In this document: piece by piece, positions 32,830-51,850 of the stretch | How the letters are laid out: every line of letters starts with the position of its first letter | How positions within the stretch are numbered: position 1 is the stretch's first letter | Source: Scylla paramamosain | Lineage: Eukaryota > Arthropoda > Malacostraca > Decapoda > Portunidae | Direction of reading: 5' to 3' | Assembly: GCF_035594125.1 (NCBI RefSeq) | Contig: NC_087166.1 | Coordinates: 18,291,266 to 18,355,265 of the forward strand | DNA length: 64,000 nucleotides | Notes under the pieces: generated by a model | The model's database searches: none | Told to the model about the DNA's origin: nothing | What the model saw: only the letters and a program-made list of their open reading frames with translations | Program-made: the position numbers and the translations under genes

Positions 32830-33513
32830 TTTTTTTTTTCTCATGTAACAGGGAAACTGGCTAAGGGGAACAAAAAAAAAAAACACTGAGATGCCAGTCC
32901 CAGAAAAGGGACAAATGCGGTAATAAAAAATTGAAGGATAATTGTCTTAAACCTCCCTCTTGAAGGAATTCAAATCATAGGAAAGTGAAAATACAGAAGC
33001 AGACAGGGAGATCCAGAGTTTACCAGAGAAAGGGATGAATGACTGAGAATATTGGTTAACTCTTGTATTAGAGAGGTGGACAGAATATAGGGTGAGAGAA
33101 AGAAGAAAGTCTTCTGCACCAAGGCCGCTGGAGGGGAGGCATGCAGTTAGCAATATCAGGAGAGCAGTTAGCATGAAACTAGCGGTAAAAGACATCTAGA
33201 GATGCAATATTGCGGCAATGAGAGAGAGGCTGGAGACATTCAGTTAGAGGAGAGGAGTTAATGAGACGAAATACTTTTGATTCTACCCTGTCTAGAAGAG
33301 CGGTATCAGTGATACCCCCCAGACATGTGAAGAATACTCCATACATGGACGGATAAAGCCCTTCTACAGACCAAAACTGGCGGAGACATCTCAGAACACC
33401 TAACTTCATAGAAGCTGTTTTAGCTAATAGTGAGATGTGAGGTTTCCAATTCAGATTAAAAGTAAAGGACAGACTGAGAATGTTCAATGTAGAAGAGAAT
33501 AGTAGAGTAAGTG
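32830..33513 (-). mobile_element. LINE copy K, 3' part
   Basis: Inverse 3' fragment with a T-run tail at 32828-32840, the 3' UTR ('ggaaactggctaaggggaac'), and frames 32947-33195 and 33179-33541 carrying NTRVNQYSQSFIPFSGKLW and MKLGVLRCLRQFW blocks. It is truncated at the DT-LT block at 33513, beside the palindrome and LTR element. Confidence 0.85.
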
Positions 33514-33528
33514 TCACCAGGGTCGCCT

Positions 33529-33703
33529 TGTAGCGGGACACAAGTCACCGCTCCTAGCACTCCGTTTTCTGTTAATTTATCACCCTTCCGTTTTCACTCT
33601 CTATACTGCACAGACTTTTATCTTTCATATCTTTTTCATCACTTTATACACTTCTCGCTTGAGCAACTTCCGGGCGGCCAAGTAGCTCCTCATCTTCGCT
33701 ACA
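33529..33703 (+). repeat. 5' LTR
   Basis: 175 bp, TG...CA ends, two mismatches with the 3' LTR (a/c in 'ctctata/ctctcta' and t/c in 'catctt/cacctt'). Confidence 0.92.
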
Positions 33704-33705
33704 AT

Positions 33706-33719
33706 TGGTGACCCTGTTG
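33706..33719 (+). promoter_or_regulatory. Primer-binding site, tRNA-Trp type
   Basis: TGGTGACCCTGTTG lies two bases after the LTR. The first nine bases complement the CCA-ended acceptor stem of animal tRNA-Trp, the primer known for CsRn1-clade elements. Later bases diverge. Confidence 0.6.
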
Positions 33720-33729
33720 TTTTTCCGGA

Positions 33730-33790
33730 ATGAGCAGCCAAGTCCACCCTGCTGCTATCCTCCAACCACCTACAACCACAACTACAACCG
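33730..33790 (+). pseudogene. Gag N-terminal stub
   Basis: ATG at 33730 opens a frame MSSQVHPAAILQPPTTTTTT in the position and sense expected for gag. After about 17 codons it runs into sequence belonging to the RT (YNRFIPSCSLLLQPL), marking the rearrangement breakpoint; most of Gag is missing. Confidence 0.6.
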
Positions 33791-33910
33791 CTTCATCCCC
33801 AGCTGCTCACTACTTCTTCAGCCGCTCTGGACTGTCCTCTCTTGCAAGGCTTGATCATCGCGTAGAGCGGCTGAAGAAGTAGTGAGCAGCTGGGGATGAA
33901 GCGGTTGTAG
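33782..33910. repeat. Perfect 47-bp inverted repeat, 35-bp loop
   Basis: 33782-33828 and 33864-33910 are exact reverse complements, each encoding YNRFIPSCSLLLQPL on opposite strands. It marks the left breakpoint of the inverted segment and would form a strong hairpin. Confidence 0.92.
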
Positions 33911-35086
33911 TAGTTCAGCATCCCCAGGAATTGCTTGAGTTGGCGCTGTGTTGTAGGCTTGGGGAAGTTCTGGATGGACTCGCACTTTTCTTGCAGTGGA
34001 GTGATGCCTTCCAAGGAGACAGTGTGGCCAAGGAAGGTGATGGAGGGGACCCCAAACACAGACTTGTCGATGTTGACTTGCACCCCGTAGTCTTGCAAAC
34101 GGGTGAGTACTTGCTGGAGGTGCTGTTGGTGCGTCTCTGCGTCAGGACTGGCGATGAGGAGGTCGTCGATGTACGCGAAGCAGAAGGGGAGACCTCGAAG
34201 GACTTCGTTGGAAGGTTTGAGCGGCATTCCTCAAACCAAAGGGCATCCTGACGTACTCGAACAATCCGAAGGGTGTGATGAGAGCAGTCTTCGGAATGTC
34301 CGCTGGATGGACGGGGATGTGGTGAAAAGCTTTCACAAGGTCGATCCTCGAGAAGTAGGTGCATCCAGAGAGCTGAGAAGAGAACTCCTGGATGTTAGGC
34401 ACTGGGTACCTGTCCTCGACGGTGCGCGAGTTGAGAGCGCGGTAGTCTCCACATAGTCGTAGTTCGCCATTTTTCTTAGGCACGATGTGGAGAGCGGAAG
34501 ACCAGTTGCTGGAGCTGGGCCGTATGATGCCTTGCTGAATGAGGGACTCGAACTCTGCCTTGGCTTGTCTGGCGCGCTCTGGAGCTAGGCGGCGGGCCTT
34601 GGCGTGGGTAGGAGGTCCCTTGGTCTCGATGTGGTGCGAGACGTGGTGTGTGACCGGCTTGCTGGCTGAGTACGGCTGCGTCAGCGTAGGAAAGGACTTC
34701 AGCAGGGAGGAGAACTGGTGGTCTGCCTTGACGAGGGAGATCTGTGTGCTATCACCATGAGTGACCTGTCCCTTTGTTGTGACTGAGGTGAGAGGATCGA
34801 GCAGCTTCCGACCCTTGATGTCCACTAGGAGACCGAAGTGTCGGAGGAAGTCAGCACCTAGAATTGGTTGCGTGACAGCTGCTACGTAGAACGTCCACTC
34901 GAAGGTACGGCGGAGGTTCAGGTGAAGTTGCAAGGTGCGTCGCTTGTACACAGGAATCTCCGTACCACTGGCGGCGTGATGGTGAAGGATGGGAGGCAAC
35001 GTCCGGTCTACACCAGGGACAGGGAGAATACTGACGTCTGCACCAGAGTCGATGAGGAACTTGGTCCGGGAGAGAGGGTCATACAA
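33793..35086 (-). pseudogene. Inverted protease and reverse transcriptase
   Basis: Frame 34142-35086 carries an aspartic protease (FLIDSGADVSILP, catalytic DSGA at about 35039-35050) and RT blocks 1-4: EFESLIQQGIIRPSSSNWSS, HIVPKKNGELRLCGDYRALN and MPFGLRNAAQTFQR. A frameshift near 34220 passes to frame 33793-34227 with the catalytic box FAYIDDLLIASP (YIDD at about 34162-34173) and FLGHTVSLEGITPL, then LNYYNRFIPSCSLLLQPL. Beyond this the frame runs into the hairpin. RNase H, which should follow, is instead at 35439 on the other strand. Enzyme copies cDNA; here non-functional because of the frameshift and inversion. Confidence 0.9.
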
Positions 35087-35127
35087 CTTCAGTAGCGCAG
35101 ACGAGGTGTCGCGAACACTATGCGCCG

Positions 35128-35430
35128 CTAGTGCTCGCTGTTGGGGTTTAAAGACTTGGCGAAGGTACAGGGAGCCTTACAATTTCTTGTGTCTTTCCCG
35201 AACTCTTCATGGTAGTAGCAGAAACTAGAAGTCTCCGGCGTCTTACTCTTTGAACGCTGGCGGCGCCGGAAGTGGTGACTGGAGGAAGAACGCGAACGTG
35301 AGCATGAGCGTTCTCTGATCTCTCTCCGAAGATCACTCACTTCAAGTATAAGCTGTGAGACGAGCTCAACAAGTTGCTTGGTACTGTCTTCTGCTGAGAT
35401 GGAGGCTACGGAGTCGACGTCATCAGGCAT
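35128..35430 (-). pseudogene. Inverted Gag C-terminus with CHCC zinc motif
   Basis: A 100-residue frame with an Arg/Ser-rich tract (RERSCSRSRSSSSHHFRRRQ) followed by CYYHEEFGKDTRNCKAPC, spaced C-x2-H-x9-C-x3-C. This CHCC arrangement in place of the usual CCHC knuckle is typical of CsRn1-clade Gag. The frame ends just before the protease frame. Its N-terminal part is missing and the opposite strand starts RNase H only nine bases away at 35439, so this is the right breakpoint of the inversion. Confidence 0.8.
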
Positions 35431-35438
35431 TGTGCTGA

Positions 35439-37194
35439 GTGGACCACCAAGTGACTGGAGTCTTCTGGACTCCAGCCACTGAGGAAGCTTTCACAGCAGC
35501 AAAACAAGCTCTCAGCTCCGTCTCACCTCTCAGCTTCCCAGCCCCAGATGGCATCATCTCTATCGCCACAGACGCTTCTGACATCGGCATCGGAGCAGTT
35601 CTACAGCAGTATGTCGACGGAGGTTGGAAACCGCTCTCTTTCTTCTCAAAGAAATTTAACAAGGCGGAATCCAAGTACAGTACTTACGACAGGGAACTTC
35701 TCGCCGTCTACAAGGCCATCAAGCGTTTCCGGTACTTCGTGGAAGGTCGCAACTTCCATGTATACACCGACCACAAGCCACTCACTTCGAAGTCCCTGCA
35801 CATCAAGACCTCCTGTTCACCGCGACAACTGCGTCACATCGACTTCATCTCGCAGTTCACCACGGATTTGCGCTACGTCAAAGGTGAACACAACGCCCCA
35901 GCTGATGCTCTCTCGCGCAACATCTCTGCTGTGTCATCTTCTCCCATCGACTACACTGCCATCGCTGCTGACCAGGCCAACGATGAAGAGCTGTGGCAAC
36001 TCCAAGACAACCCCGCACTACAGATGAAGAAGATACAACTCCCAGGAACCACAGTGCACGTTTACGCTGACACTTCCACCGATTCCTGTCGGCCCTACTT
36101 GCCGAAGACTCACCGGTATCGTGTTTTTCGTCAGCTGCACGACCTCTCCCACCCTGGCATCCGAGCATCTCAGCAGATGATGACTTCACGCTTCATCTGG
36201 TCTGGCATCAACAAAGACGTCAGTCTGTGGACCCGCACATGTGTCAAGTGCCAAGCCTCCAAGGTGTGGCGACACACACGCTCTCCTGCGGCCGCCTTCA
36301 CTCCAGTCTCTTCACGGTTCGACCACGTGCATGTCGACCTCGTTGGACCACTACCCTACTCTGACGGTTACCGGTACCTTCTCACCTGCGTCGACCGCTT
36401 CACACGCTGGCCGGAAGCTGCACCTTTGGCTGACATCACAACGGACTCCGTCGCACGTGCCTTCATCACTACTTGGATCTCCAGGTTCGGTGTCTCTCTC
36501 AGCCTCACTTCTGACCGTGGCAGCCAGTTCGAGTCCAGTATGTGGAACAAGGTGATGTCACTACTAGGCATCCAACGCTTCAGGACAGCCAGTTACCACC
36601 CGCAGGCAAACGGCACCGTTGAGATTCCACCGTCAGCTGAAGTCTTCCTTAGCTGCCTCTGCCACACGTGCAGACTGGTTCCAGGCACTTCCTCTCGTCC
36701 TCCTTGGCATACGGACATCGCTAAAGGAAGACCTACACCACTCCTCCGCCGAGCTCGTTTATGGTACCAAGCTCAGGTTACCTGGCGAACTCCTAACTCC
36801 TGCACCTCGCTCTACTCCTTGCAGCGTTCAGGACTTTGCTGCCAACCTCTCTGACTTCATGCAGCGTCTGCAGCCTGTCCAGCCTCGCACGCCTCCCTCC
36901 AAGACTTTTGTCAGCCAGGATCTGGACACTTGCACGCACGTGTTCGTCAGGGTTGACGCTGTGAAGAAGCCCCTGCAGCAGCCCTACCAAGGCCCCTTCA
37001 AAGTCCTGAGCAGGAGGAGAAAGACGGTCACTGTGGACAAGGATGGTAAGGCTGACACCATCTCCATCGACCGAGTCAAGCCTGCCTACCTCCTTCACAG
37101 TGACCCGGCCGTCATCAACACCATCGGCCAGAACGTCGCCACCAACACCACTCGGCACCAGAAGAAGGTTACGTTCCTCCTCCCTCGTCACTAG
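35439..37194 (+). pseudogene. RNase H and integrase of the CsRn1-like element
   Basis: Frame 35439-36854: RNase H begins VTGVFWTPATEEAFTAAKQA, with catalytic-type ISIATDASDIGIGAVL, KYSTYDRELLAVYKAIKRF and YTDHKPLT. Integrase follows: zinc-binding HDLSHPGIRASQQMM...CVKCQ, then DDE residues in HVDLVGPLPYSDGY, TSDRGSQFES and ANGTVE. A small deletion near 36625 shifts the frame; frame 36619-37194 continues with WFQALPLVLLGIRTSLKED, SAELVYGTKLRLPGE and a GPF box in YQGPFKVLSRRRKTVTV, ending at a stop at 37192. Integrase inserts the cDNA; this copy is broken once. No start codon is needed because it is the distal part of a polyprotein. Confidence 0.9.
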
Positions 37195-37203
37195 GGGGGG
37201 AAT
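37194..37203 (+). promoter_or_regulatory. Polypurine tract
   Basis: A ggggggaa run ends three bases before the 3' LTR, the expected site for plus-strand priming. Confidence 0.7.
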
Positions 37204-37205
37204 AC

Positions 37206-37380
37206 TGTAGCGGGACACAAGTCACCGCTCCTAGCACTCCGTTTTCTGTTAATTTATCACCCTTCCGTTTTCACTCTCTCTACTGCACAGACTTTTATCT
37301 TTCATATCTTTTTCATCACTTTATACACTTCTCGCTTGAGCAACTTCCGGGCGGCCAAGTAGCTCCTCACCTTCGCTACA
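37206..37380 (+). repeat. 3' LTR
   Basis: 175 bp, 173 identical to the 5' LTR; followed by GCCT, the right copy of the target duplication. Confidence 0.92.
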
Positions 37381-37455
37381 GCCTATCCTAAAATAGCAAG
37401 CCATGGGGGTCACCATGAAATAAGGACCCCCATGGCTTGCCATTTTAGGATAGGC
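37381..37455. repeat. 31-bp inverted repeat at the insertion site
   Basis: 37381-37411 and 37425-37455 are reverse complements with one mismatch and a 13-base loop. The outer arm continues as 'gcgaccctggtggc' at 37455-37468, which is complementary to 'gtcaccagggtcgc' at 33514-33527 (one mismatch), on the other side of the LTR element, so the empty site was a palindrome with arms of about 43 bp. Confidence 0.85.
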
Positions 37456-37468
37456 GACCCTGGTGGCA

Positions 37469-38460
37469 TTTTTCCTGGGAACCTCAGTGGCAAGTCACGA
37501 TGGTGACCCTGGCGGTAAATTAACGTCAGGAGGGTGGGAATGGGTTGCCACTATGGTCCCCATCGCTCGCGCGGGTCCTGGGCTGCCAGGGTGCTTGAGT
37601 CTTGCTATTACGTGTTCCCTCCGACATCTCAGTACATTCCAATGTCTCCCACCACTCGATGGTCAAGGTCAGCGGAAGGAAAGGGGAGGAGGACTGAACA
37701 CATCAGAAAAGTGAATAGTGACGCCACCAGGGGACATGCGGCCTTTGTTTTGGGCGGGAACAGAAACTTGAGGACTATAGGATGGGACGCCACGCGGCCG
37801 ATACGCGCTAGCCAGGGTGGTCAAGGAAGCGTGGGCGGATCTGGCCGCCGCGGCTGTGATTCGGCGGGCGGTGGCATCAGCAACTCCGGAGATTCCGGCC
37901 GCGACTGCTGCTGCGGCTGCCGCTGCGGGTGTGGCTGCTGCTGCAACTGCTGCGGCTCCTGTCCTGGCGGGGCATCAGGAGGTGGGGTCGCTGGCAGCGG
38001 TCACATGTCGTCATTGCTAAAGATCAATTTCTTCTTTGCAGGCTCCGACATTCGACATCGACATCCTCATGGCCGGCACGGCTTCGCTTTCCCCCAATAT
38101 TGCCCAAATAGATATCAAAGCGGAAAGAGATACGTTCTGTAACAGACAAAAAAAAAATAAAAAGAACATAACAGACAAAAAAAAAAAAGATGAGAACAAT
38201 GGAATTTTTTTTTTTTTTCTCCCCTCTCTTCTTGTTCATTGGCAAAGAATGTTAATGTAATTTACAATGGCGAAGGTGCGTGATGACATGCATGGCAATG
38301 GCGTACTTACCCGCGGTCCTCAAGATGAAATGCTTGTCAGTTTGTTCCATTCTTAAAGATGAGTCCTCAACGTCCGACTGGGTTGAGAGGCGATGGCGAA
38401 GTGACGCTTATCCATCAGCAATTAGCCCATTTTGACACCCTTCCCCCCACCCCACCCCTT
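37469..38460. other. GC-rich stretch, no gene confirmed
   Basis: 37790-38030 is GC- and CpG-rich with GCN repeats that translate as an alanine run in one frame (AATAAAAAAAGVAAAAT) and a cysteine/glycine run in another. An acceptor-like 'tttcttctttgcag' ends at 38041. I see no conserved domain, so this may be a promoter-like island or a decayed exon. T/A runs follow at 38145-38220. Confidence 0.3.
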
Positions 38461-38467
38461 TCCCCAT

Positions 38468-38990
38468 CTACCTTCTTACCGCTTTACAAATGTTACAACA
38501 TCTCACACGGCTGCCAGCCAGACAAAACGTAGGAATACAATGTGGCGTTTTACGAAATATTACGTAAGCCATATGAGTAATTTTTTTGTCATTATATAAA
38601 TATTGATGCTTTTTGAAGGTGGCATGAATAATGCACATTGCACGTTTTAATGTATGCCAGCTCAATAGAAGGCAAAAGAACATGCAATAAATGCCACACA
38701 CGAGGGAGTTCAACCCCTGAAGTCGATAATTTATTGTACTAATTTTTCATATGTGGACAAGTTTGCATAAAATTATGTAAAACGGCAGAATTGTATTTGG
38801 GATGTAAGTTATAGCTATCGTAATAGCCTATGGTCTGACTTTGAAAATTAAAATAAACAGTAATCCAGTGACCCATGGTCTTCGACCCACTCAATGTATT
38901 TAGAATGAAAACACATGGCTTCGTCTGTTTTCTGGCAAGATTTATCAGCTCTCACACGACGTTGGTCGTGACATCCTAAAAATTAAACTC
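38468..38990 (-). pseudogene. Adenain-like maturation protease remnant (virus-like element)
   Basis: The first part (about 38990-38739) reads CVFILNTLSGSKTMGHWITV then YYDSYNLHPKYN, the G-H-W catalytic-His and D-S-Y/F block of the adenovirus/Polinton cysteine protease. After a stop and frame change, 38468-38713 continues with SLVCGIYCMFFCLLLSW, containing the catalytic Cys in a C-G-x-Y-C setting, and an N-D-K-x-I-T motif. Such proteases cleave capsid precursors in adenoviruses and Polinton/adintovirus-like elements. The break between the His and Cys parts makes it non-functional. It is the most 3' gene of the module. Confidence 0.7.
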
Positions 38991-39299
38991 GATCGCCCAA
39001 GATACCTGCTAGACCGGCTTGTATTTCACGTGCATTCATGACGGCTTATGCGCGGAAAACACAGCGAACATGACAATAATGATCAATTTATATGATGCCA
39101 GTAGTGTCGGCGAAAAACATGATGACGCGGTTGTGATTACATCCCTTAACAAAAGACAGATTAATTCTTAGATTCCCTGATTTATCCAGAAGGATGGCAT
39201 TGTGCACGTCCTCCGTGGACAAAGCATTGTGCACAAACCTCCGTCACAAAGTTAAAGAAACATACTGTCCGAACTTTATTAAAAGTATCAAATGTTAGG

Positions 39300-40347
39300 G
39301 AATTACGCATGTCCAATCCTAGTGACTGAAGGGTCGTGTAAAATAATTTTCATGCGTGATGCGGGAAAGAGCTACGAACATTATAAATGGCCGCCCCATC
39401 CACGGTGATATATACATGTAACGGATCGGTGTGATGAGAATATAAACCATTCTTATCAATTACGCCTTGTAAGCTGTCCATATCAATTATTGCCAGGGTC
39501 AAATTTTGAGGCATGATTTGCACGAAAGGTAATTTGGGAATTAAAGACGTTTGATTGGCGCCTAACACATATGTCTTATTGAGTGTCCTATTGAAAGTGT
39601 ATTGCACTGGATTTAGAGTCAGGTACTTGTTAATGATTCTAAGGCGGGCTGCTACGGAGTGACATAACCCATAACTTAGACATCTCGAGCTTAAATTTGA
39701 AACTGCTGGCGTCCTAGTGTGAATTAAGAATCCATGTTTTGTTAGCCAATTATAATCGAATTCTCACAAGTAGGTAAGCGTCCACACTTGATATATCCGA
39801 AAACAAAGCCGCAGTAATCAAAAGGCCGTGCGTTTTACAATCCTTTATCATTTGTTTCTCATCTTTATTCCCACCCGTGAAATAGTCTTCATCATATTTT
39901 TTTTTATTATGCCTTTTGATCCATCATAATCGCGGTGGTAGAAGGCGACGCGACCAATAGAGTCAATTTTATCCTGAGGGATTGTTGTATATCATTTTAA
40001 TGGAGGCGTGATAGTTGAACAAAGAGGATGACTCCATAAGCTGTTCATTAAAATAACAAGCGCATCGTATTCTTCAAGTCATTACTAAAGATTACGTGAT
40101 CGTCGTCGTCTAGTGGCGTGCCATCCGCCTTCGCCACGCTAACTCGCAATTCTATAGAGAGCGTTGATAAATCCGAAAATTGTCCTGGAATGCCAGGCAG
40201 TCTAAATTCAATGTAGGGGTAGTTAATTCCCCCATAATTATTAGCATTAGCGTCTAAATTAACGGATAATACGTCCAACTTTCGCCTCGCAGCGACTGAC
40301 GATTCGATGGTAAGCAGGCGATTCACCCGCGGGAAATTCTCACTCAT
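39300..40347 (-). pseudogene. F54H12.2-like structural protein remnant (virus-like element)
   Basis: Frame 40048-40347 carries YPYIEFRLPGIPGQFSDLST and LRVSVAKADGTPLDDDDHV, the N-terminal signature (I-E-F...G-x-x-x-Y/F-x-D-L...V-x-x-x-x-A-D-G-T) of the F54H12.2-like family that recurs in animal genomes beside virus-like genes. Farther along, 39350-39607 has LPFVQIMPQNLTLAIIDMDS and a G-x-x-x-K-N block as in the family's later part. At least three frameshifts/stops separate these. Based on its genomic company in other animals it is probably a capsid protein; its exact role is inference. Confidence 0.62.
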
Positions 40348-40416
40348 GCCATCAAGGGCGAGGAGGTCGCTCCTCCCTGTACATCCAGCCCGTAATGAGT
40401 CATCTTCGCGACTAAG

Positions 40417-40854
40417 CTAAATATTGAAGATATCTGCCTTACAGCAAGTCTTTCTTTTCAGTTGCCTGGTTGGTTGTCTTCTCTTTTTTTTTTTTCTGAC
40501 TCCAACTTTCCTCTTTCTCATTACTCGTCCACCTCGAACTATCCTTTCGCCCACATCCTTCACGGCGGCGACGCTTCTATTTCTTAATGATTCACGAAGT
40601 CCTTTCCCCTCTAAAACATCTGATAATAAACCTTTTCCCATTTGGAGCACTTTGGGTGCCACAGTGCGCATGAGAAAGGGAATTGCTCTTTTAGCAAAGC
40701 TGCTCTGCACGGAAAATAGACCGCCACCTCTTCTTGAATGGGGTGGAATAAAAACCCGGATGTCATCTAACTCCCCGCCTTTGCTTTGCGTAAAAAGCAA
40801 GTCATATTCCGCTCGAGTGGGAGGTGTGAACGCTCTCGTCATAATGACCGCCAC
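40417..40854 (-). CDS. Basic core/pX-like protein of virus-like element
   Basis: An uninterrupted 145-residue frame. It has a GGELDDIRVFIPPHSRRGGG segment, a hydrophobic stretch PFLMRTVAPKVLQMGKGLLS, DVLEGKGLRESLRNRSVAA, and a very basic tail with KRKVGVRKKKKRRQP. The glycine-rich entry, the G-K-x-x-L-x-D-V-x-x-G-x-x-x-x-x-S-L pattern and the basic tail resemble minor core/pVI-pX-type proteins of adenovirus-like and Polinton-like elements, which bind DNA or membrane. It is the only member of the module still open across its length. Start chosen at the MAVIMTR ATG, the first in frame. Confidence 0.58.
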   Translation of the reverse strand: MAVIMTRAFTPPTRAEYDLLFTQSKGGELDDIRVFIPPHSRRGGGLFSVQSSFAKRAIPFLMRTVAPKVLQMGKGLLSDVLEGKGLRESLRNRSVAAVKDVGERIVRGGRVMRKRKVGVRKKKKRRQPTRQLKRKTCCKADIFNI

Positions 40855-40899
40855 GTCACGAATAAGACACCGAGCATAATCACTGGCTATTTATTTCTG

Positions 40900-41763
40900 T
40901 CTGAAATGCAGTAAGAGTGTAATTGATTTATCCCTCCTAAAGTGAATGGGCCGGCCAACTTCTTCCGCGAATTGAATCACAATCGAATCGATAATAGTTT
41001 TACTGAGCGATTTATATGCATTCTAATGAATTTTTTTACCACCGGCGGACTCCATGCTAATGACTTCTAATAAGTTGACATGCTGACCGCCATATATCGT
41101 CGGTGACACACAGTCCGCGTAAAATAGTGCGAAATGTATTCCCCCATCAATTCGAGGCGGGAAAGGGGCGGGAATGAAGGTGGAGTTGTTTTCAGCGTAT
41201 GAACTCTATAAATTATACTTGGCGTGATAATGAAAGCCCAAGATATGAGCCATCCTGGATCCAAATTTCGCAGTCAAGTAGCAGAAATGGCCATTGTTGT
41301 CGCACTGTGGCGCATTCCGAAGGACGCGCTCCACCCTTCGCTTTTTTTCATTATAGTAAAAAAAATTGATCACCCTCAAAATACTGGTCATACTCAGTCT
41401 TCATATTGTTCATATTGTTCATATTGTTAATTCTTCGGCCAATTCGATATTAATGACGTCAACCATATACCCAGTATCGCCCACCTCCGTGCTCGTTCTA
41501 GGTGTGTATGTATGAAGTTTATACATATGTGTTTCATCGACGTGGGCTACAGCCCAAATCTCAATCCTGCAAGCATAATCACCCGCCACTAGACCCAAGA
41601 ACTGTTCTGGATAAAAGCAGTTTATCAGACCTACTTCATATTCCTTATTTGGATCAAGATGGATGGGGAGTGATTCTATTTTCAAAGCGATGGGGCTGGT
41701 TATGGGGGTAGAGGTCGGTGTTGCCCAGACTCGTCAAATACAGATAATGCTCCGCTCCCGCCA
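40900..41763 (-). pseudogene. Penton-like protein remnant (virus-like element)
   Basis: An ATG at 41763 opens MAGAEHYLYLTSLGNTDLYP, then a frameshift near 41690. Frame 41419-41685 carries IHLDPNKEYEVGLINCFYPE, the 'L...W/Y-E-V-x-L-x-x-x-x-Y-P' signature. Frame 41206-41391 has AKFGSRMAHILGFHYHAKY, and another frame around 41060-41150 reads GIHFALFYADCVSPTIYGGQ, matching the family's Y-x-D-x-V-x-x-x-x-x-G block. The order and spacing agree with the penton/spike-like gene that accompanies F54H12.2-type genes. Several frame breaks; dead. Role is inference from context. Confidence 0.55.
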
Positions 41764-41907
41764 TGATCAAAATAAATAATAATGACCATCCCAGTTAAGG
41801 AATACATTTATACTCGGTTCGTCACACACACATCAAATTTATTTTAAAATTTTACATGATATAGTTTATTCAGACTTCCTCACCAGAATAGTTTCAACTC
41901 CAAAAGG

Positions 41908-42204
41908 TTAAAGTCGCTCCGGCAACCCTTCCACCACAGGCAGGTAATTATTCATCCACTCATCCTGGCAGCGACCTCTGTACCCCATTCCTTCCTGGAT
42001 GAAAATCTGCTCCATTTCAGTGTTCGCCATGGCTAGCAGTGCAATCTTTTTCAGGCAATTCTGGCAGTAAAGACGTCGGTTCACGCTTGTATCCATCTTG
42101 AGGCCTTCCATGTAAGGCAAATCCTTCGATGTCGCAATTGCCTGTCGTGCCTTCTCGTTATCCTCGACAGCCTCGCCCCAACCATACTGAGTCACGCAGG
42201 CCAC
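41908..42204 (-). CDS. Hypothetical protein of virus-like element
   Basis: A 98-residue open frame with one C-x2-C (LYCQNCLKKIALLAMANTE) and a second Cys later in GRCQDEW. I do not recognise it. It lies between the penton-like and the upstream genes of the module, in the same orientation, so it may be a module gene or its fragment. Confidence 0.3.
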   Translation of the reverse strand: MACVTQYGWGEAVEDNEKARQAIATSKDLPYMEGLKMDTSVNRRLYCQNCLKKIALLAMANTEMEQIFIQEGMGYRGRCQDEWMNNYLPVVEGLPERL

Positions 42205-42817
42205 CAGGTGGGGGAGATTTATGCTTCCTGTGGGAGACGTGTGGATAATGATACATCCTGGTTCATCTCTTGTGTCCGCAGTGGCCCAATGAGGCTAGTA
42301 GAGTCTCTTTCTAGCAACATGCATATTCTCGTATGGATAAATCGTTTTATCGAGGTCCCATGCAATCCCGCACGGTTCGGTGGAGACCGCATTTACCGCG
42401 TAATATAACAATAACGATCAAGGAACGCGCTGTCGGTCAGCTTGCCCTCGACCACCTTCATCTTGACGACTAATTGGAGGATAGATCCACACGTCGAACC
42501 CTCTGTGCGGGGAGTGAGGGGCGAATCTGACATCGCGGGCTTTTATTCGCACGTATTGGCCAATATTACTCCTTTTGCGTAATAGAATTATTAATTCAAA
42601 CTGATGCAGGTGTTATATTTTTTGCTTTGTTGGTGGGAAGGGATGGGGGACGGGGAACATATTACTTATTAGGGGATGTGGGTGATGGGACGAACCTTTT
42701 TGACCATAACCCTTATTAATTATCCATCCATGGTTCTGCACCCCTAACGCACCTAACACGTTCACGTCAATGACTCATGACGGAGACCCAAATGACTCAA
42801 AGACGGAGCCTTTCATC
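42205..42817. other. Unassigned stretch within virus-like module
   Basis: No conserved motif seen on either strand; the module's polymerase, ATPase and integrase were specifically looked for and not found here. Confidence 0.35.
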
Positions 42818-43319
42818 TTAATATGCTTCCCAGATGTGTCCAATCCCGCCGCCTATCAGATTACTTCGTTGAGCCGTATTTCTGATGGCGCTGGCGGGGA
42901 GTTGTGCCAAGAGAAGCAGCAGTGATAATAATGGACGCTTATCGGCCAAAAGTCTTTTCGCGTCTCCTTTTCCGTCGCCGAGTACTCGTATGAGATCAAA
43001 CACACTTATACCCGAAAATGGCGGAAGTAAGTTACCGCGATCATCCCATGAAATCCCAGGTTTACCCTCCAGTTATTTTAAGAGATAAACCGTATTCTCT
43101 AAAGGAAGGTGGAACACCAACATCCAAGGGCGGATTAACAGGCGCGCGTGACGGCGGAGATGCGGTGGATGCGGCGGTGGTGGAGGTGACCAGCGGAGTA
43201 AATGAAGTATTTTTTTTCTTGACTTGTTTTGACGTGAATCGGTGCGGAGTTGCGACTTCGGCCGGTTTAAACTTATACCTCTCGGCAACTGAGACGGGAA
43301 CTAAACAATATTCTTTCAT
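42818..43319 (-). pseudogene. Conserved accessory protein remnant of virus-like element
   Basis: From an ATG near 43319, EYCLVPVSVAERYKF opens the gene in the style of the module's 'L-V-P-x-x-x-x-x-R' protein, followed by a Ser/Thr/Pro-rich linker to a stop at 43062. In a second frame, 42818-43003 has VFDLIRVLGDGKGDAKR and QLPASAIRNTAQR, like the family's C-terminal D-L-I/L...V-P...I-x-N block. Frameshifted; function unknown. Confidence 0.45.
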
Positions 43320-43397
43320 CTCTGTAGTAAACTTGTTATTGCCGACACGGCTATCGGGAGTAACGCGGCCAATATGGTGCCACCTCGTTTGGAGATG

Positions 43398-43644
43398 AGA
43401 ATAGCTTTTTTCCTTGTACACGGGCTACAGTGCGAATATCACTCTTGAATTTTTTCAGGCGGTTAATGATGATATCGTCGTCCGTCAGGCGTTTCTTCAA
43501 AAAGTTGGCGAATATTTACGAGATGCAATTGACTTTCCGCTTATTCAAACTCTGCAAGACCTTGTTCCGCAGTTTAGGGGAGACGTGAGACAAAAAGAAA
43601 ATCAAATCCTTGTACTGCAATATCAATGGTTTTTCCTCATCCAT
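43398..43644 (-). pseudogene. Small helical protein remnant of virus-like element
   Basis: An ATG at 43644 opens a frame with DLIFFLSHVSPKLRNKVL, then a stop at 43516-43518, then in the same frame IFANFLKKRLTDDDIIINRL and KKFKSDIRTVARVQGKK. The L-x-x-L...R-x-x-x-L...E/I-x-x-N-x-L-x-x-x...L-x-x-x-K pattern is that of the short helical protein that usually begins this gene cluster. One nonsense change; role unknown. Confidence 0.45.
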
Positions 43645-43734
43645 ATCTTGCTAAGTCGTCCGCATCTATCCAGCTGTCAAATTTATTTGGATATCCACGC
43701 CAGTGGACGAAATACTCTCTCTTACCTCGCTCGA

Positions 43735-43778
43735 CCTTCGATCGATCTTCGATCTTTGATCGATCTTCGATCGATCCT
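43735..43778. repeat. GATC-rich short tandem repeat
   Basis: 'gatcgatcttcgatc' units repeat imperfectly about three times; they lie at the upstream edge of the virus-like module. Confidence 0.7.
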
Positions 43779-43885
43779 TGTAGAATGCACTGGTCACGTC
43801 ATCACCCGCCAAATGCTTTATGTAATAAATAGAGATTTTATGTGAGTAATCCACACGACTTATCTTAAAAAGCTCCTCGGTATTG

Positions 43886-43987
<102 letters not shown>

Positions 43988-44557: not shown

Positions 44558-46065
<1,508 letters not shown>

Positions 46066-48796: not shown

Positions 48797-51700
48797 TTTT
48801 TTTTTTTTTTTTATGTAGGAGGGAAACTGGCCAAGGGCAACAAAAAAAAAATGCCCATTGAAATGCCAGTACCATAAAAGGGTCCAAAAAGGTAGTCAAA
48901 AATTAAAGGATAAGTGTCTTGAAACCTCCCTCTTGAAGGAATGCAAGTCATAGGAAGGTTGAAATACAGAAGCAGGCAGGGAGTTCCAGAGTTTACCAGA
49001 GAAAGGGATGAATGATTGAGAATACTGGTTAACTCTTGTGTTAGAGAGGTTGACAGATTAGGGGTGAGAGAAAGAAGAAAGTCTTGTGCAGCAAGGCCGC
49101 GGGAGGAGGGGAGGCATGCAGTTAGGAAGATCAGAAGAGCAGTTAGCATGAAAATAGCGGTAGAAGACAGCTAGAGATGCAACATTGTGGTGATGAGAGA
49201 GAGGCTGAAGATAGTTAGAGAAGAGGAGTTGATGAGATGAAAGGCTTTGGATTCCACCCTGTCTAGCAGTATGAGTGGAACCCAACCACACATGTGAAGC
49301 ATACTCCATAAATGGATGGATAAGGCCCTTGTACATAGTTAGCAGCTGCGGAGGGCGGGAGTGAGAAAAACTGGCTGAGACGTCTCAGAACACCTAACTT
49401 CATAGAAGCTGTTTTAGTTAGAGATGAGATGGAAAGTTTCCAGTTCAGATTATAAATAAAGAACAGAACGAGGATGTTATGTGTAGAAGAAGAGAGGGCA
49501 GTTGAGTGTTACTGAAGAAGAGGGAATAGTTGTCTGGAACGCTGTGTCCAGTTGATAGATAGAGGCATTTGATAGATTTGAGACATTGAACAATACCAAG
49601 TTTGCTCTGCCCCAATCAGAAATTTTTGAAAGATCAGAAGTCATGCGTTCGGTGGCTTCCCTGCGTGAAATGTTTACTTCCTGAAGGGTTGGACGTCTAT
49701 GAAAAGACGTGGAAAAGTGCAGGGTGGTATCATCAGCGTAGGAGTGGATAGGACAACACGTTTGGTTTAGAACATTATTAATGAATAGTAAGAAGAGAGT
49801 GGGTGGCAGGACAGAACCCTGAGGAACATCACTGTTAATAGATTTAGGAGGAGAACAGTAACCGCCTACCATAGCAGCAGTAGAACGCTCAGAAAGGAAA
49901 CTTGAGATGAAGTTACAGAGAGAAGGATATAAGTCGTAGGAGGGTAGTTTGGAAATCAAAGCTTTGTGCCATATCAAAAGCTTTTGATATGTCCAAGGCA
50001 ACAGCATAAGTTTCACCAAAATCTCTAAAAGAGGATGACCAAGACTCAGTAACGAAAGCCAGAAGATCACCAGTAGAGCGGCCTTGACGGAACCCATACT
50101 GGCGATCAGATAGAAGGTTGTGAAGTGATAGATGTTTAATAATCTTCCTGTTGAGGATAGATTCAAACACCTTAGAATTTAAAAGCAATAGGACGGTAGT
50201 TTGAGGGATTAGAACGGTCACCCTTTTTAGGAACAGGCTGATTGTAGGCGAACTTCCAGCAAGAAGGAAAGGTGCAAGCACGGAGGCACAGTTTCGGAGA
50301 ACAATGGACCCCATCAGGTCCATAAGCCTTCCGAGGGTTTAAGCCAGCAAGAGCATGGAAAACATCATTGCGAAGATAGGTAGCATGAAGTAGTCAGCGG
50401 GTGGAGGAGAGGGAGGAACAAACCCTGAATCGTACAAGGTAGAGTTTTTAGCAAAGGTTTGACCGAAGAGTTCAGCTTTAGAAATAGATGTGATAGCAGT
50501 GGTGCCATCTGGTTGAAATAAAGGAGGGAAAGAAGAAGAAGCAAAGTTATTGGAGATATTTTTGGCTAGATGCCAGAAGTCACGAGGGAAGTTAGATCTT
50601 GAAAAGTTTTGACACTTTCTGTTAATGAAGGCGTTTTTGGCTAGTTGGAGAACAGACTTGGCATGGTTCCGGGCAGAAATATAAAGTAAATGAGATTCTG
50701 GTGATGGATGGCTTAAATACCTTTACTGGGCCAACTCTCTATCATGTATACCACGAGAACAAGCTGTCTTAAACCAAAGTTTGGAAGGTTTAGGTCGAGA
50801 AAAAGAGTGAGGAATGTACGCCTCCATGCCAGACACTATCACCTGTTATGCGCTCAGCACACAAAGACGGGTCTCGGACATGGAAGCAGTAGTCATTCCA
50901 AGAAAAATCAGCGAAACGACAGAGGCACCTTCGTTTAGGGAGATCCTGAGGACGGATTGGAGCGATAGGACAAGATACAGATATGAGATTATGATCGAGG
51001 AACCCAACGGAGAAGAAAGGGTGACAGCATAAGCAGAAGGATTAGAGGTCAGGAAAAGGTCAAGAATGTTGGGCGTATCTCCAAGACGGTCAGGAATACG
51101 AGTAGGGTGTTGCACCAAATGCTCTAGGTCATGGAGGATAGCAAAGTTCTAGGCTAGTTCACCAGGATGGTCAGTGAAGGGAGAGGAAAGCCAAAGCTGG
51201 TGGTGAACAGTGAAGTCTCCAAGAATGGAGATCTCTGCAAAAGGGAAGATGGTCAGAATGTGCTCCACTTTGGAAGTTAAACAGTCAAATATTTTTTTTT
51301 ATAGTCAGAGGAGTTAGGTGAAAGGTATAAAACAGATAAATTAAATTTGAGAGTGACTCTGTAGTCGTAGCCAGATGGTGAAAAACTCGGAAGATTCAAG
51401 AGCATGGGCACGAGAGCAGGTTAAGTCATTGCGCACATAAATGCAACATCCAGCTTTGTATCGAAAATGAGGATAGAGAGTAGGAGGAACAGAAAAGGGG
51501 CTACTGTCAGTTACCTCAGACACCTGAGTTTCAGTGAGGAAAGGATGAGGTTTAGAAGAGGAGAGGTGGTGTTCTACAGATTGAAAATTAGATCTTAGAC
51601 CGCTAATGTTGCAGAAGTTAATGAAGAAAAAGTTAAGGGGGGGGTGTTAAGACACAGGGTCGTCGACAGAAAGGTAGTCCGACCTGGGGACATTTATGGT

Positions 51701-51850
51701 CATCTCCCCAGATAGGGACTCCGAGGCTGGTGTAGGAGTCGCCATGATAATTTTGAAATTTTTGAGTGAAGTGTGTGTGTGTTATTAGGTGCTTGTAGTT
51801 TTGTGTGGAGGATGAGAGTTGTCTTTAGAGGGCAGGCTGTGATTGGGGAT
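48797..51850 (-). mobile_element. LINE copy L, near full length
   Basis: The best-covered copy. Its tail is the T run at 48794-48812; then 3' UTR, C-terminal domain (48811-49336), RT frame 49477-50166 with HSYADDTTLHFSTSFHRRP and SDVPQGSVLPPTLFLLFI, earlier RT frame 49913-50323 (DRQYGFRQGRSTGDLLAF), linker to 50760, and endonuclease frames 50846-51118 ([20 protein letters not shown]) and 51341-51523 (AGCCIYVRNDLTCSRAHA). The leader starts at an ATG at 51745 (MATPTPASESLSGEM) and stops before the endonuclease. The 5' UTR reaches 51850. Length about 3.05 kb. Frameshifts and a small RT deletion; APE endonuclease plus RT, no RNase H seen. Confidence 0.9.

What the first reader, a model, noticed from the sequence alone, without database searches (positions are those of the whole stretch)
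38468..43644. Endogenous DNA-virus-like module (Polinton/adintovirus-related) in a crustacean genome
In one orientation lie remains of an adenain-like cysteine protease (GHW, DSY and VCGIYC blocks), an F54H12.2-like protein, a basic core/pX-like protein, a penton-like protein and two small conserved companions. This order fits virus-like elements known beside F54H12.2-type genes in other animals. No polymerase, packaging ATPase or integrase was seen, so it is a structural-gene half. Most genes are frameshifted, but the basic core-like frame is intact.
Basis: partly seen in the sequence, partly recalled or inferred. Interest (0 to 1): 0.85.

Follow-up and report, generated by a model that had tools for sequence, protein, structure and literature searches.

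The report
Fossil Polinton virus in crustacean genome
The window holds the broken tail half of an old virus-like mobile element (a Polinton, also called Maverick), and the same genome carries dozens of nearly identical younger copies that seem to have lost one of two related capsid genes.

Summary
The module is real: a decayed Polinton/Maverick (adintovirus-like) element at about 33501-43888, minus strand. A gypsy retrotransposon (33529-37380) sits inside that TIR. Polymerase, ATPase and integrase core were not found in the window; homology stops at a (TA)n tract.

The host assembly (1.21 Gb) holds relatives with the full gene set, about 15.5 kb long, with (AGT)2 ends; 8 of 8 copies with both ends found (11 examined) have perfect 6-bp target duplications. 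They carry a second penton-like gene, B, identical in 28 of 128 matches. Five young copies (99.4-99.98% identical) lack penton A with the same breakpoints; the window copy keeps A. Duplicates on contig C1 look mostly neutral, so domestication is unlikely.

Verdict: new member of a known kind. The interesting part is the loss of penton A before a burst. 'Penton' itself rests on position, not on a fold or profile match.

The parts
33501..33528 (-). Outer end of the Polinton 3' TIR, cut off by the gypsy insertion (inferred)
   Evidence: Begins AGTAG and, read across the gypsy element, continues the TIR text that follows at 37381; compared by eye with the C8 TIR end. Similarity of the left neighbour to a LINE-like repeat ends at about 33497.
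33529..37380 (+). Gypsy-type LTR retrotransposon nested in the TIR (not part of the Polinton)
   Evidence: LTRs 33529-33703 and 37206-37380, 98.9% identical over 175 bases, flanked by GCCT on both sides.
37381..37811 (-). Inner part of the 3' TIR
   Evidence: blastn matches in both orientations to the two TIRs of the C8 copy.
38042..38149 (-). Remnant of ORF199 (last gene before the 3' TIR)
   Evidence: tblastn 83% over 36 aa, E 7e-15.
38471..39045 (-). Adenain-like cysteine protease, three frames, with the GHW, DSY and LQGLNSLVCGIYC blocks
   Evidence: tblastn covers all 192 aa, E 6e-93; blocks read; the C8 protein has Peptidase_C48 9.6e-4, below the curated cut-off, and adenain 1avp as best PDB match, E 0.016.
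39049..40457 (-). Major capsid protein, several frames
   Evidence: tblastn E 8e-152 and 3e-58 with L001; the relative P0012 folds as a double jelly roll.
40417..40842 (-). Basic core (pX-like) protein, open frame of 141 aa
   Evidence: Eight database relatives, 49-89% identical; frame read.
40894..41746 (-). Penton-like gene A, with stops; absent from the young copies
   Evidence: E 3e-36 with the L001 protein; gap 40909-41747 in L027-L031.
41869..42542 (-). ORF225, lineage gene of unknown function, two frames
   Evidence: tblastn E 5e-100; not between companion and penton in L001.
42821..43319 (-). Companion gene, two frames
   Evidence: tblastn with L001 and with the C8 protein.
43649..43887 (-). 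Integrase C-terminus with chromodomain, two frames
   Evidence: Pfam Chromo 6.9e-9; integrase residues 286-344, E 4e-17.
43889..43985 (.). (TA)n tract where homology to the other copies ends
   Evidence: Tandem repeat; alignments end at 43888 in five copies and 43896 in a sixth; a seventh stretch ends there itself.

Best explanation
This is a decayed insertion of a Polinton/Maverick element, an integrating DNA virus or self-synthesising transposon, in a crustacean (probably decapod) genome. Shown for relatives in the same genome: genes in one direction (penton-like B, polymerase B, ATPase, integrase, companion, ORF225, with or without penton-like A, core, MCP, protease, ORF199), TIRs, and 6-bp target duplications. 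Inferred from that anatomy: the polymerase copies the linear element, MCP and a vertex protein form a shell that the ATPase fills and the protease matures, and the integrase inserts the DNA. The window copy inserted next to or into a LINE-like repeat, lost its 5' half, gathered stops and frameshifts, and later took a gypsy element into its 3' TIR; as it stands it can make no virion. The lineage that spread most recently had lost penton A, probably in one deletion, and carries only penton-like B.
For: Every gene piece collinear with relatives. Chromodomain remnant. Relatives: DNA_pol_B_2 3e-23, rve 1e-8, weaker Pox_A32 3.6e-4 and Peptidase_C48 9.6e-4; PHROG DNA polymerase 3e-11 and terminase 5e-4; about 40 of 93 polymerase rows list an open frame over 1,300 aa. 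MCP fold: pLDDT 84.4, double-jelly-roll capsid proteins as best PDB matches. TIRs and 6-bp duplications in 8 of 8 copies with both ends found, of 11 examined. Gypsy insertion inside the TIR with its own duplication. MCP dN/dS 0.15-0.44 between lineages.
Against: The window copy alone lacks polymerase, ATPase, integrase core and one end, so its own target duplication cannot be checked. Penton identity is untested: structure model pLDDT 36, no PDB, Pfam or PHROG match. ATPase and protease Pfam scores lie below curated cut-offs. The C8 integrase frame shows rve but no Chromo match. In the C8 copy itself the polymerase is split over three frames. Four scans of viral contigs found no relative.
Confidence: 0.92

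Rival explanations
1. The capsid module has been domesticated: the host keeps the MCP and core genes for its own use.
For: Some C1 copies keep an MCP frame of 459-503 aa in a cluster of 25 of 86 penton-A places within 3.75 Mb; the window core frame is open, with dN/dS 0.30 against the C8 copy; four of ten C1 MCP pairs give 0.45-0.52.
Against: Five of ten C1 MCP pairs give dN/dS 0.90-1.11 and one has no synonymous change; C1 copies lie in a satellite that was amplified with them; window MCP, protease and penton frames are broken.
Confidence: 0.04
2. The window piece is a direct integration of an exogenous adintovirus-like virus that never moved as a transposon inside this host.
For: MCP constraint between lineages fits passage through virions; a relative stands alone on a metagenome contig (L001).
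Against: Many near-identical copies with target duplications show multiplication linked to this genome, though repeated germline reinfection would look alike. The two readings differ in route, not in kind.
Confidence: 0.3
3. Contamination or an assembly artefact.
For: One relative is filed under an archaeal MAG (L001), so stray contigs of this kind exist.
Against: The window element has a host repeat at its side and a nested gypsy element with its own duplication; copies lie on many contigs at different target sites.
Confidence: 0.01

Closest known systems
Polinton/Maverick elements of animals (PMC4028283, one section read; PMC8097293, passages)
   Same: Gene set, double-jelly-roll MCP, size near 15-20 kb, (AGT)2//(ACT)2 ends, 6-bp target duplications.
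   Different: Two penton-like genes in part of the copies, and loss of the one beside the MCP in the youngest ones.
Adintoviruses (PMC11071296, passages)
   Same: rve integrase with C-terminal chromodomain; a few adintoviruses have duplicate pentons or none.
   Different: The Alpha/Beta reference sequences were not fetched, so clade membership was not tested.
L001, DQSV01000027.1, 3,291-bp contig filed under a Methanothermococcus MAG
   Same: Companion, penton-like, core and MCP frames in the same order; MCP about 42% identical to the C8 copy.
   Different: No ORF225 between companion and penton; the rest of the element is not on the contig.
Penaeus japonicus LOC122242213 (P0040)
   Same: MCP relative, 59% identical to the C8 copy over 449 aligned columns.
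   Different: Only the protein was seen; its genome context was not.

Membership tests
Polinton/Maverick | Polymerase B in the element | tested here: met
   DNA_pol_B_2 3e-23 in the C8 copy, 93 places in the genome; absent from the window copy. Protein priming was not tested.
Polinton/Maverick | rve integrase (with chromodomain in adintoviruses) | tested here: met
   rve 1e-8 in the C8 copy; Chromo 7e-9 in the window remnant. The C8 frame gave no Chromo match.
Polinton/Maverick | Packaging ATPase | tested here: inconclusive
   Pox_A32 3.6e-4 (below the curated cut-off), terminase PHROG 5e-4, P-loop text GYTNSGKT; only unrelated P-loop proteins in PDB.
Polinton/Maverick | Double-jelly-roll MCP | tested here: met
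   Model of relative P0012 and PDB/BFVD matches; the window MCP is homologous.
Polinton/Maverick | Penton (single jelly roll) | tested here: inconclusive
   Right position, but model pLDDT 36 and no profile match.
Polinton/Maverick | Adenain-like protease | tested here: met
   Peptidase_C48 9.6e-4 (just below the cut-off); best PDB match adenain 1avp, E 0.016, residues 13-130 against 12-136.
Polinton/Maverick | TIRs and 6-bp target duplication | tested here: met
   Relatives: 8 of 8 with both ends found, of 11 examined. The window copy has one TIR only and cannot be tested.
Adintoviridae (Alpha or Beta clade) | MCP and polymerase group with the clade references | not tested
   No reference sequences were fetched; the Starrett paper is not held.
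Virus with virions | Particles observed | not testable with these tools
   Only indirect: MCP dN/dS 0.15-0.44 between lineages.
Domesticated host gene | Purifying selection after insertion | tested here: not met
   C1 duplicates: five of ten MCP pairs 0.90-1.11, four 0.45-0.52, one undefined.

The most novel reading that the evidence does not exclude
The ancestral virus carried two divergent vertex proteins. One deletion removed the penton beside the MCP, the distant 5' paralogue B took over as the only vertex protein, and this switch came just before a burst that left dozens of almost identical proviruses in a living decapod. It would be a vertex-protein replacement caught inside one host genome, in a lineage that may still be circulating.
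Probability: 0.3. Interest if true: 0.7.

Novelty: new member of a known kind. Interest (0 to 1): 0.45.

Why it matters
Whether animal Polintons travel as virions is still argued from sequence, chiefly in vertebrates (PMC8097293, passages). Here a crustacean genome holds an old and a very young branch side by side, with target duplications and an MCP kept by selection between lineages. That gives a comparison of what the element kept and what it dropped (penton A) before spreading. It also shows that such genes sit unlabelled in crustacean protein sets and in a microbial genome bin.

Tried and rejected
Led nowhere: four scans of viral contigs found no relative. The penton structure model was too poor to use. 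PDB searches with window pieces of protease and penton gave nothing significant, nor did penton profiles. What lies beyond the (TA)n tract stayed open: the genome search for it did not complete.

Rejected: (1) satellite targeting. The C8 copy and five of six C1 stretches lie in one satellite, but none of the 20 flank stretches from ten other young copies matched it (the C19 5' stretch is all N and its 3' stretch holds 272 N). (2) Domestication of the C1 cluster, see rivals. (3) Penton B as mark of a separate element: B, polymerase, ATPase, integrase and the late genes lie between the two TIRs at C8. (4) The integrase match at 36357-36608 is in the gypsy element.
Full report
WHAT IS THERE. On the minus strand, from 43888 down to about 37381, the window carries a collinear but broken gene set. 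Frame lists and three-frame readings show open pieces in different frames. The basic core gene keeps an open frame of 141 aa from its ATG and has eight database relatives, 49-89% identical. A chromodomain at 43637-43798 (Pfam 7e-9) straddles the stated end of the finding and was missed.

AN OUTSIDE RELATIVE. A profile of the core protein found one relative among genomes of 84,980 prokaryote species: a 3,291-bp contig filed under a methanogen MAG, probably misplaced (L001). It encodes companion, penton-like, core and MCP frames without stops, in the same order, with the MCP running off the contig. tblastn against the window gives 8e-8 and 8e-6, 3e-36, 7e-29 and 3e-58 at the expected places. The MCP has 75 relatives; the three with an organism name are Penaeus japonicus, Palaemon carinicauda and Procambarus clarkii. 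A model of P0012 (61 sequences, pLDDT 84.4, pTM 0.84) matches double-jelly-roll capsid proteins of an iridovirus, PBCV-1, mavirus and Sputnik in the PDB. In the viral library the best match is an uncharacterised bracovirus protein, followed among others by virophage and adomavirus capsid proteins and an adintovirus protein labelled penton.

THE HOST GENOME. The window is G000:C16:18291266-18355265 in an assembly of 1.21 Gb and 234 contigs. There the penton-A piece has 151 matches, polymerase B 93, MCP 103, penton-like B 128; only the best candidates are scored, so these are lower bounds. The C8 copy, read in two separate stretches, has in one orientation penton-like B, polymerase (split over three frames in this copy), ATPase, integrase, companion, ORF225, core, MCP, protease and ORF199. 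Elsewhere about 40 of 93 polymerase rows list an open frame over 1,300 aa. The C8 TIRs begin AGTAGTTGGG and lie about 15.5 kb apart. Of 11 young copies examined, both ends were found in 8, and 8 of 8 have a perfect 6-bp target duplication. PMC8097293 (passages) gives (AGT)2//(ACT)2 ends and 6-bp duplications for vertebrate Mavericks.

BOUNDARIES. Alignments with other copies end at 43888 in five copies and 43896 in a sixth; a seventh stretch ends there itself. A (TA)n tract starts at 43889. With C8 proteins, no ATPase, polymerase or integrase core was found in the 64 kb; the B query matches only the place of penton A. On the other side a gypsy element (LTRs 98.9% identical, GCCT on both sides) sits inside the 3' TIR. 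The outer TIR piece 33501-33528 is inferred by eye. Its left neighbour is a repeat that I read as LINE-like. So the likely order is repeat, Polinton, gypsy.

TWO PENTON-LIKE GENES. Window and L001 have penton-like A beside the core gene. Elements such as C44 carry B at the 5' end as well. A, B and the L001 protein are 34-38% identical to one another, so the split is old. All five young copies with the junction in hand (L027-L031) lack window 40909-41747 with the same breakpoints. Eleven copies besides the window keep A, ten wholly and one in part; these had been fetched because they have A. By position, A lies 3-16 kb downstream of 0 of 37 B rows printed at 100% identity, 0 of 27 at 97-99%, 0 of 40 at 93-96%, and 9 of 24 below 93%. 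Among 103 MCP rows, 81 have B upstream and no A, 7 have A and no B, 15 neither. The A list comes from a 104-aa piece of the window copy, so strongly diverged A genes could be missed. The simplest reading is one deletion before the burst. Duplicate pentons are already known in a few adintoviruses (PMC11071296, passages).

AGE AND SELECTION. Five young copies are 99.41-99.98% identical over about 4.2 kb. The window copy is 90.9% identical to the C8 copy in protease-MCP-core and 85.8% in ORF225-companion. MCP dN/dS between lineages is 0.15-0.44. Penton A between old copies gives 0.25-0.6 in 18 of 24 comparisons and 0.76-1.24 in 6; two further rows compared pieces that do not correspond and are left out. 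Core, window against C8: 0.30. So these genes were under constraint while the element spread. On contig C1, 25 of 86 A places lie within 3.75 Mb. MCP pairs there give 0.90-1.11 in five of ten, 0.45-0.52 in four (all with L062, few changes) and no synonymous change in one. Flanks there are satellite, and two copies share 97.5% identity over 2.5 kb of mostly flank. I read this cluster as dead copies amplified with the satellite.

WHAT IS NOT SHOWN. Penton function, protein priming, virion formation and present activity are inferences, and so is the host group. Paper searches were seen as listings; none listed a study of a decapod Polinton family of this kind, though some crustacean repeat papers mention Mavericks or Polintons (PMC7859515, PMC9107163, PMC13130569, not opened; PMC10454600, one passage). 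Also seen: one section of PMC4028283 in part, the outline of PMC11071308, passages of PMC2836005, and a term search of PMC3671162 without matches.

Noticed in passing
G000 contig C1, 20.5-24.3 Mb: 25 of 86 penton-A places lie in 3.75 Mb, in a divergent satellite; some of the copies were duplicated together with their flanks.
   Followed up: partly
L001 (DQSV01000027.1): A Polinton-type virion gene cluster without stops is filed in a methanogen metagenome bin, probably a misplaced contig.
   Followed up: partly
window 33529-37380: Gypsy element with 98.9% identical LTRs and GCCT on both sides, nested in the Polinton TIR; likely a fairly recent insertion.
   Followed up: yes
G000 C34:1997251, C41:3481070, C23:19797702, C43:2893613: Penton-A relatives only 35-47% identical: perhaps further Polinton lineages in the same genome.
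   Followed up: no
window 48801-51845 and 33000-33497: Copies of one LINE-like repeat, also found beside four other Polinton copies.
   Followed up: no
window 45166-45285: A 62-base unit repeated twice, 100% alike.
   Followed up: no
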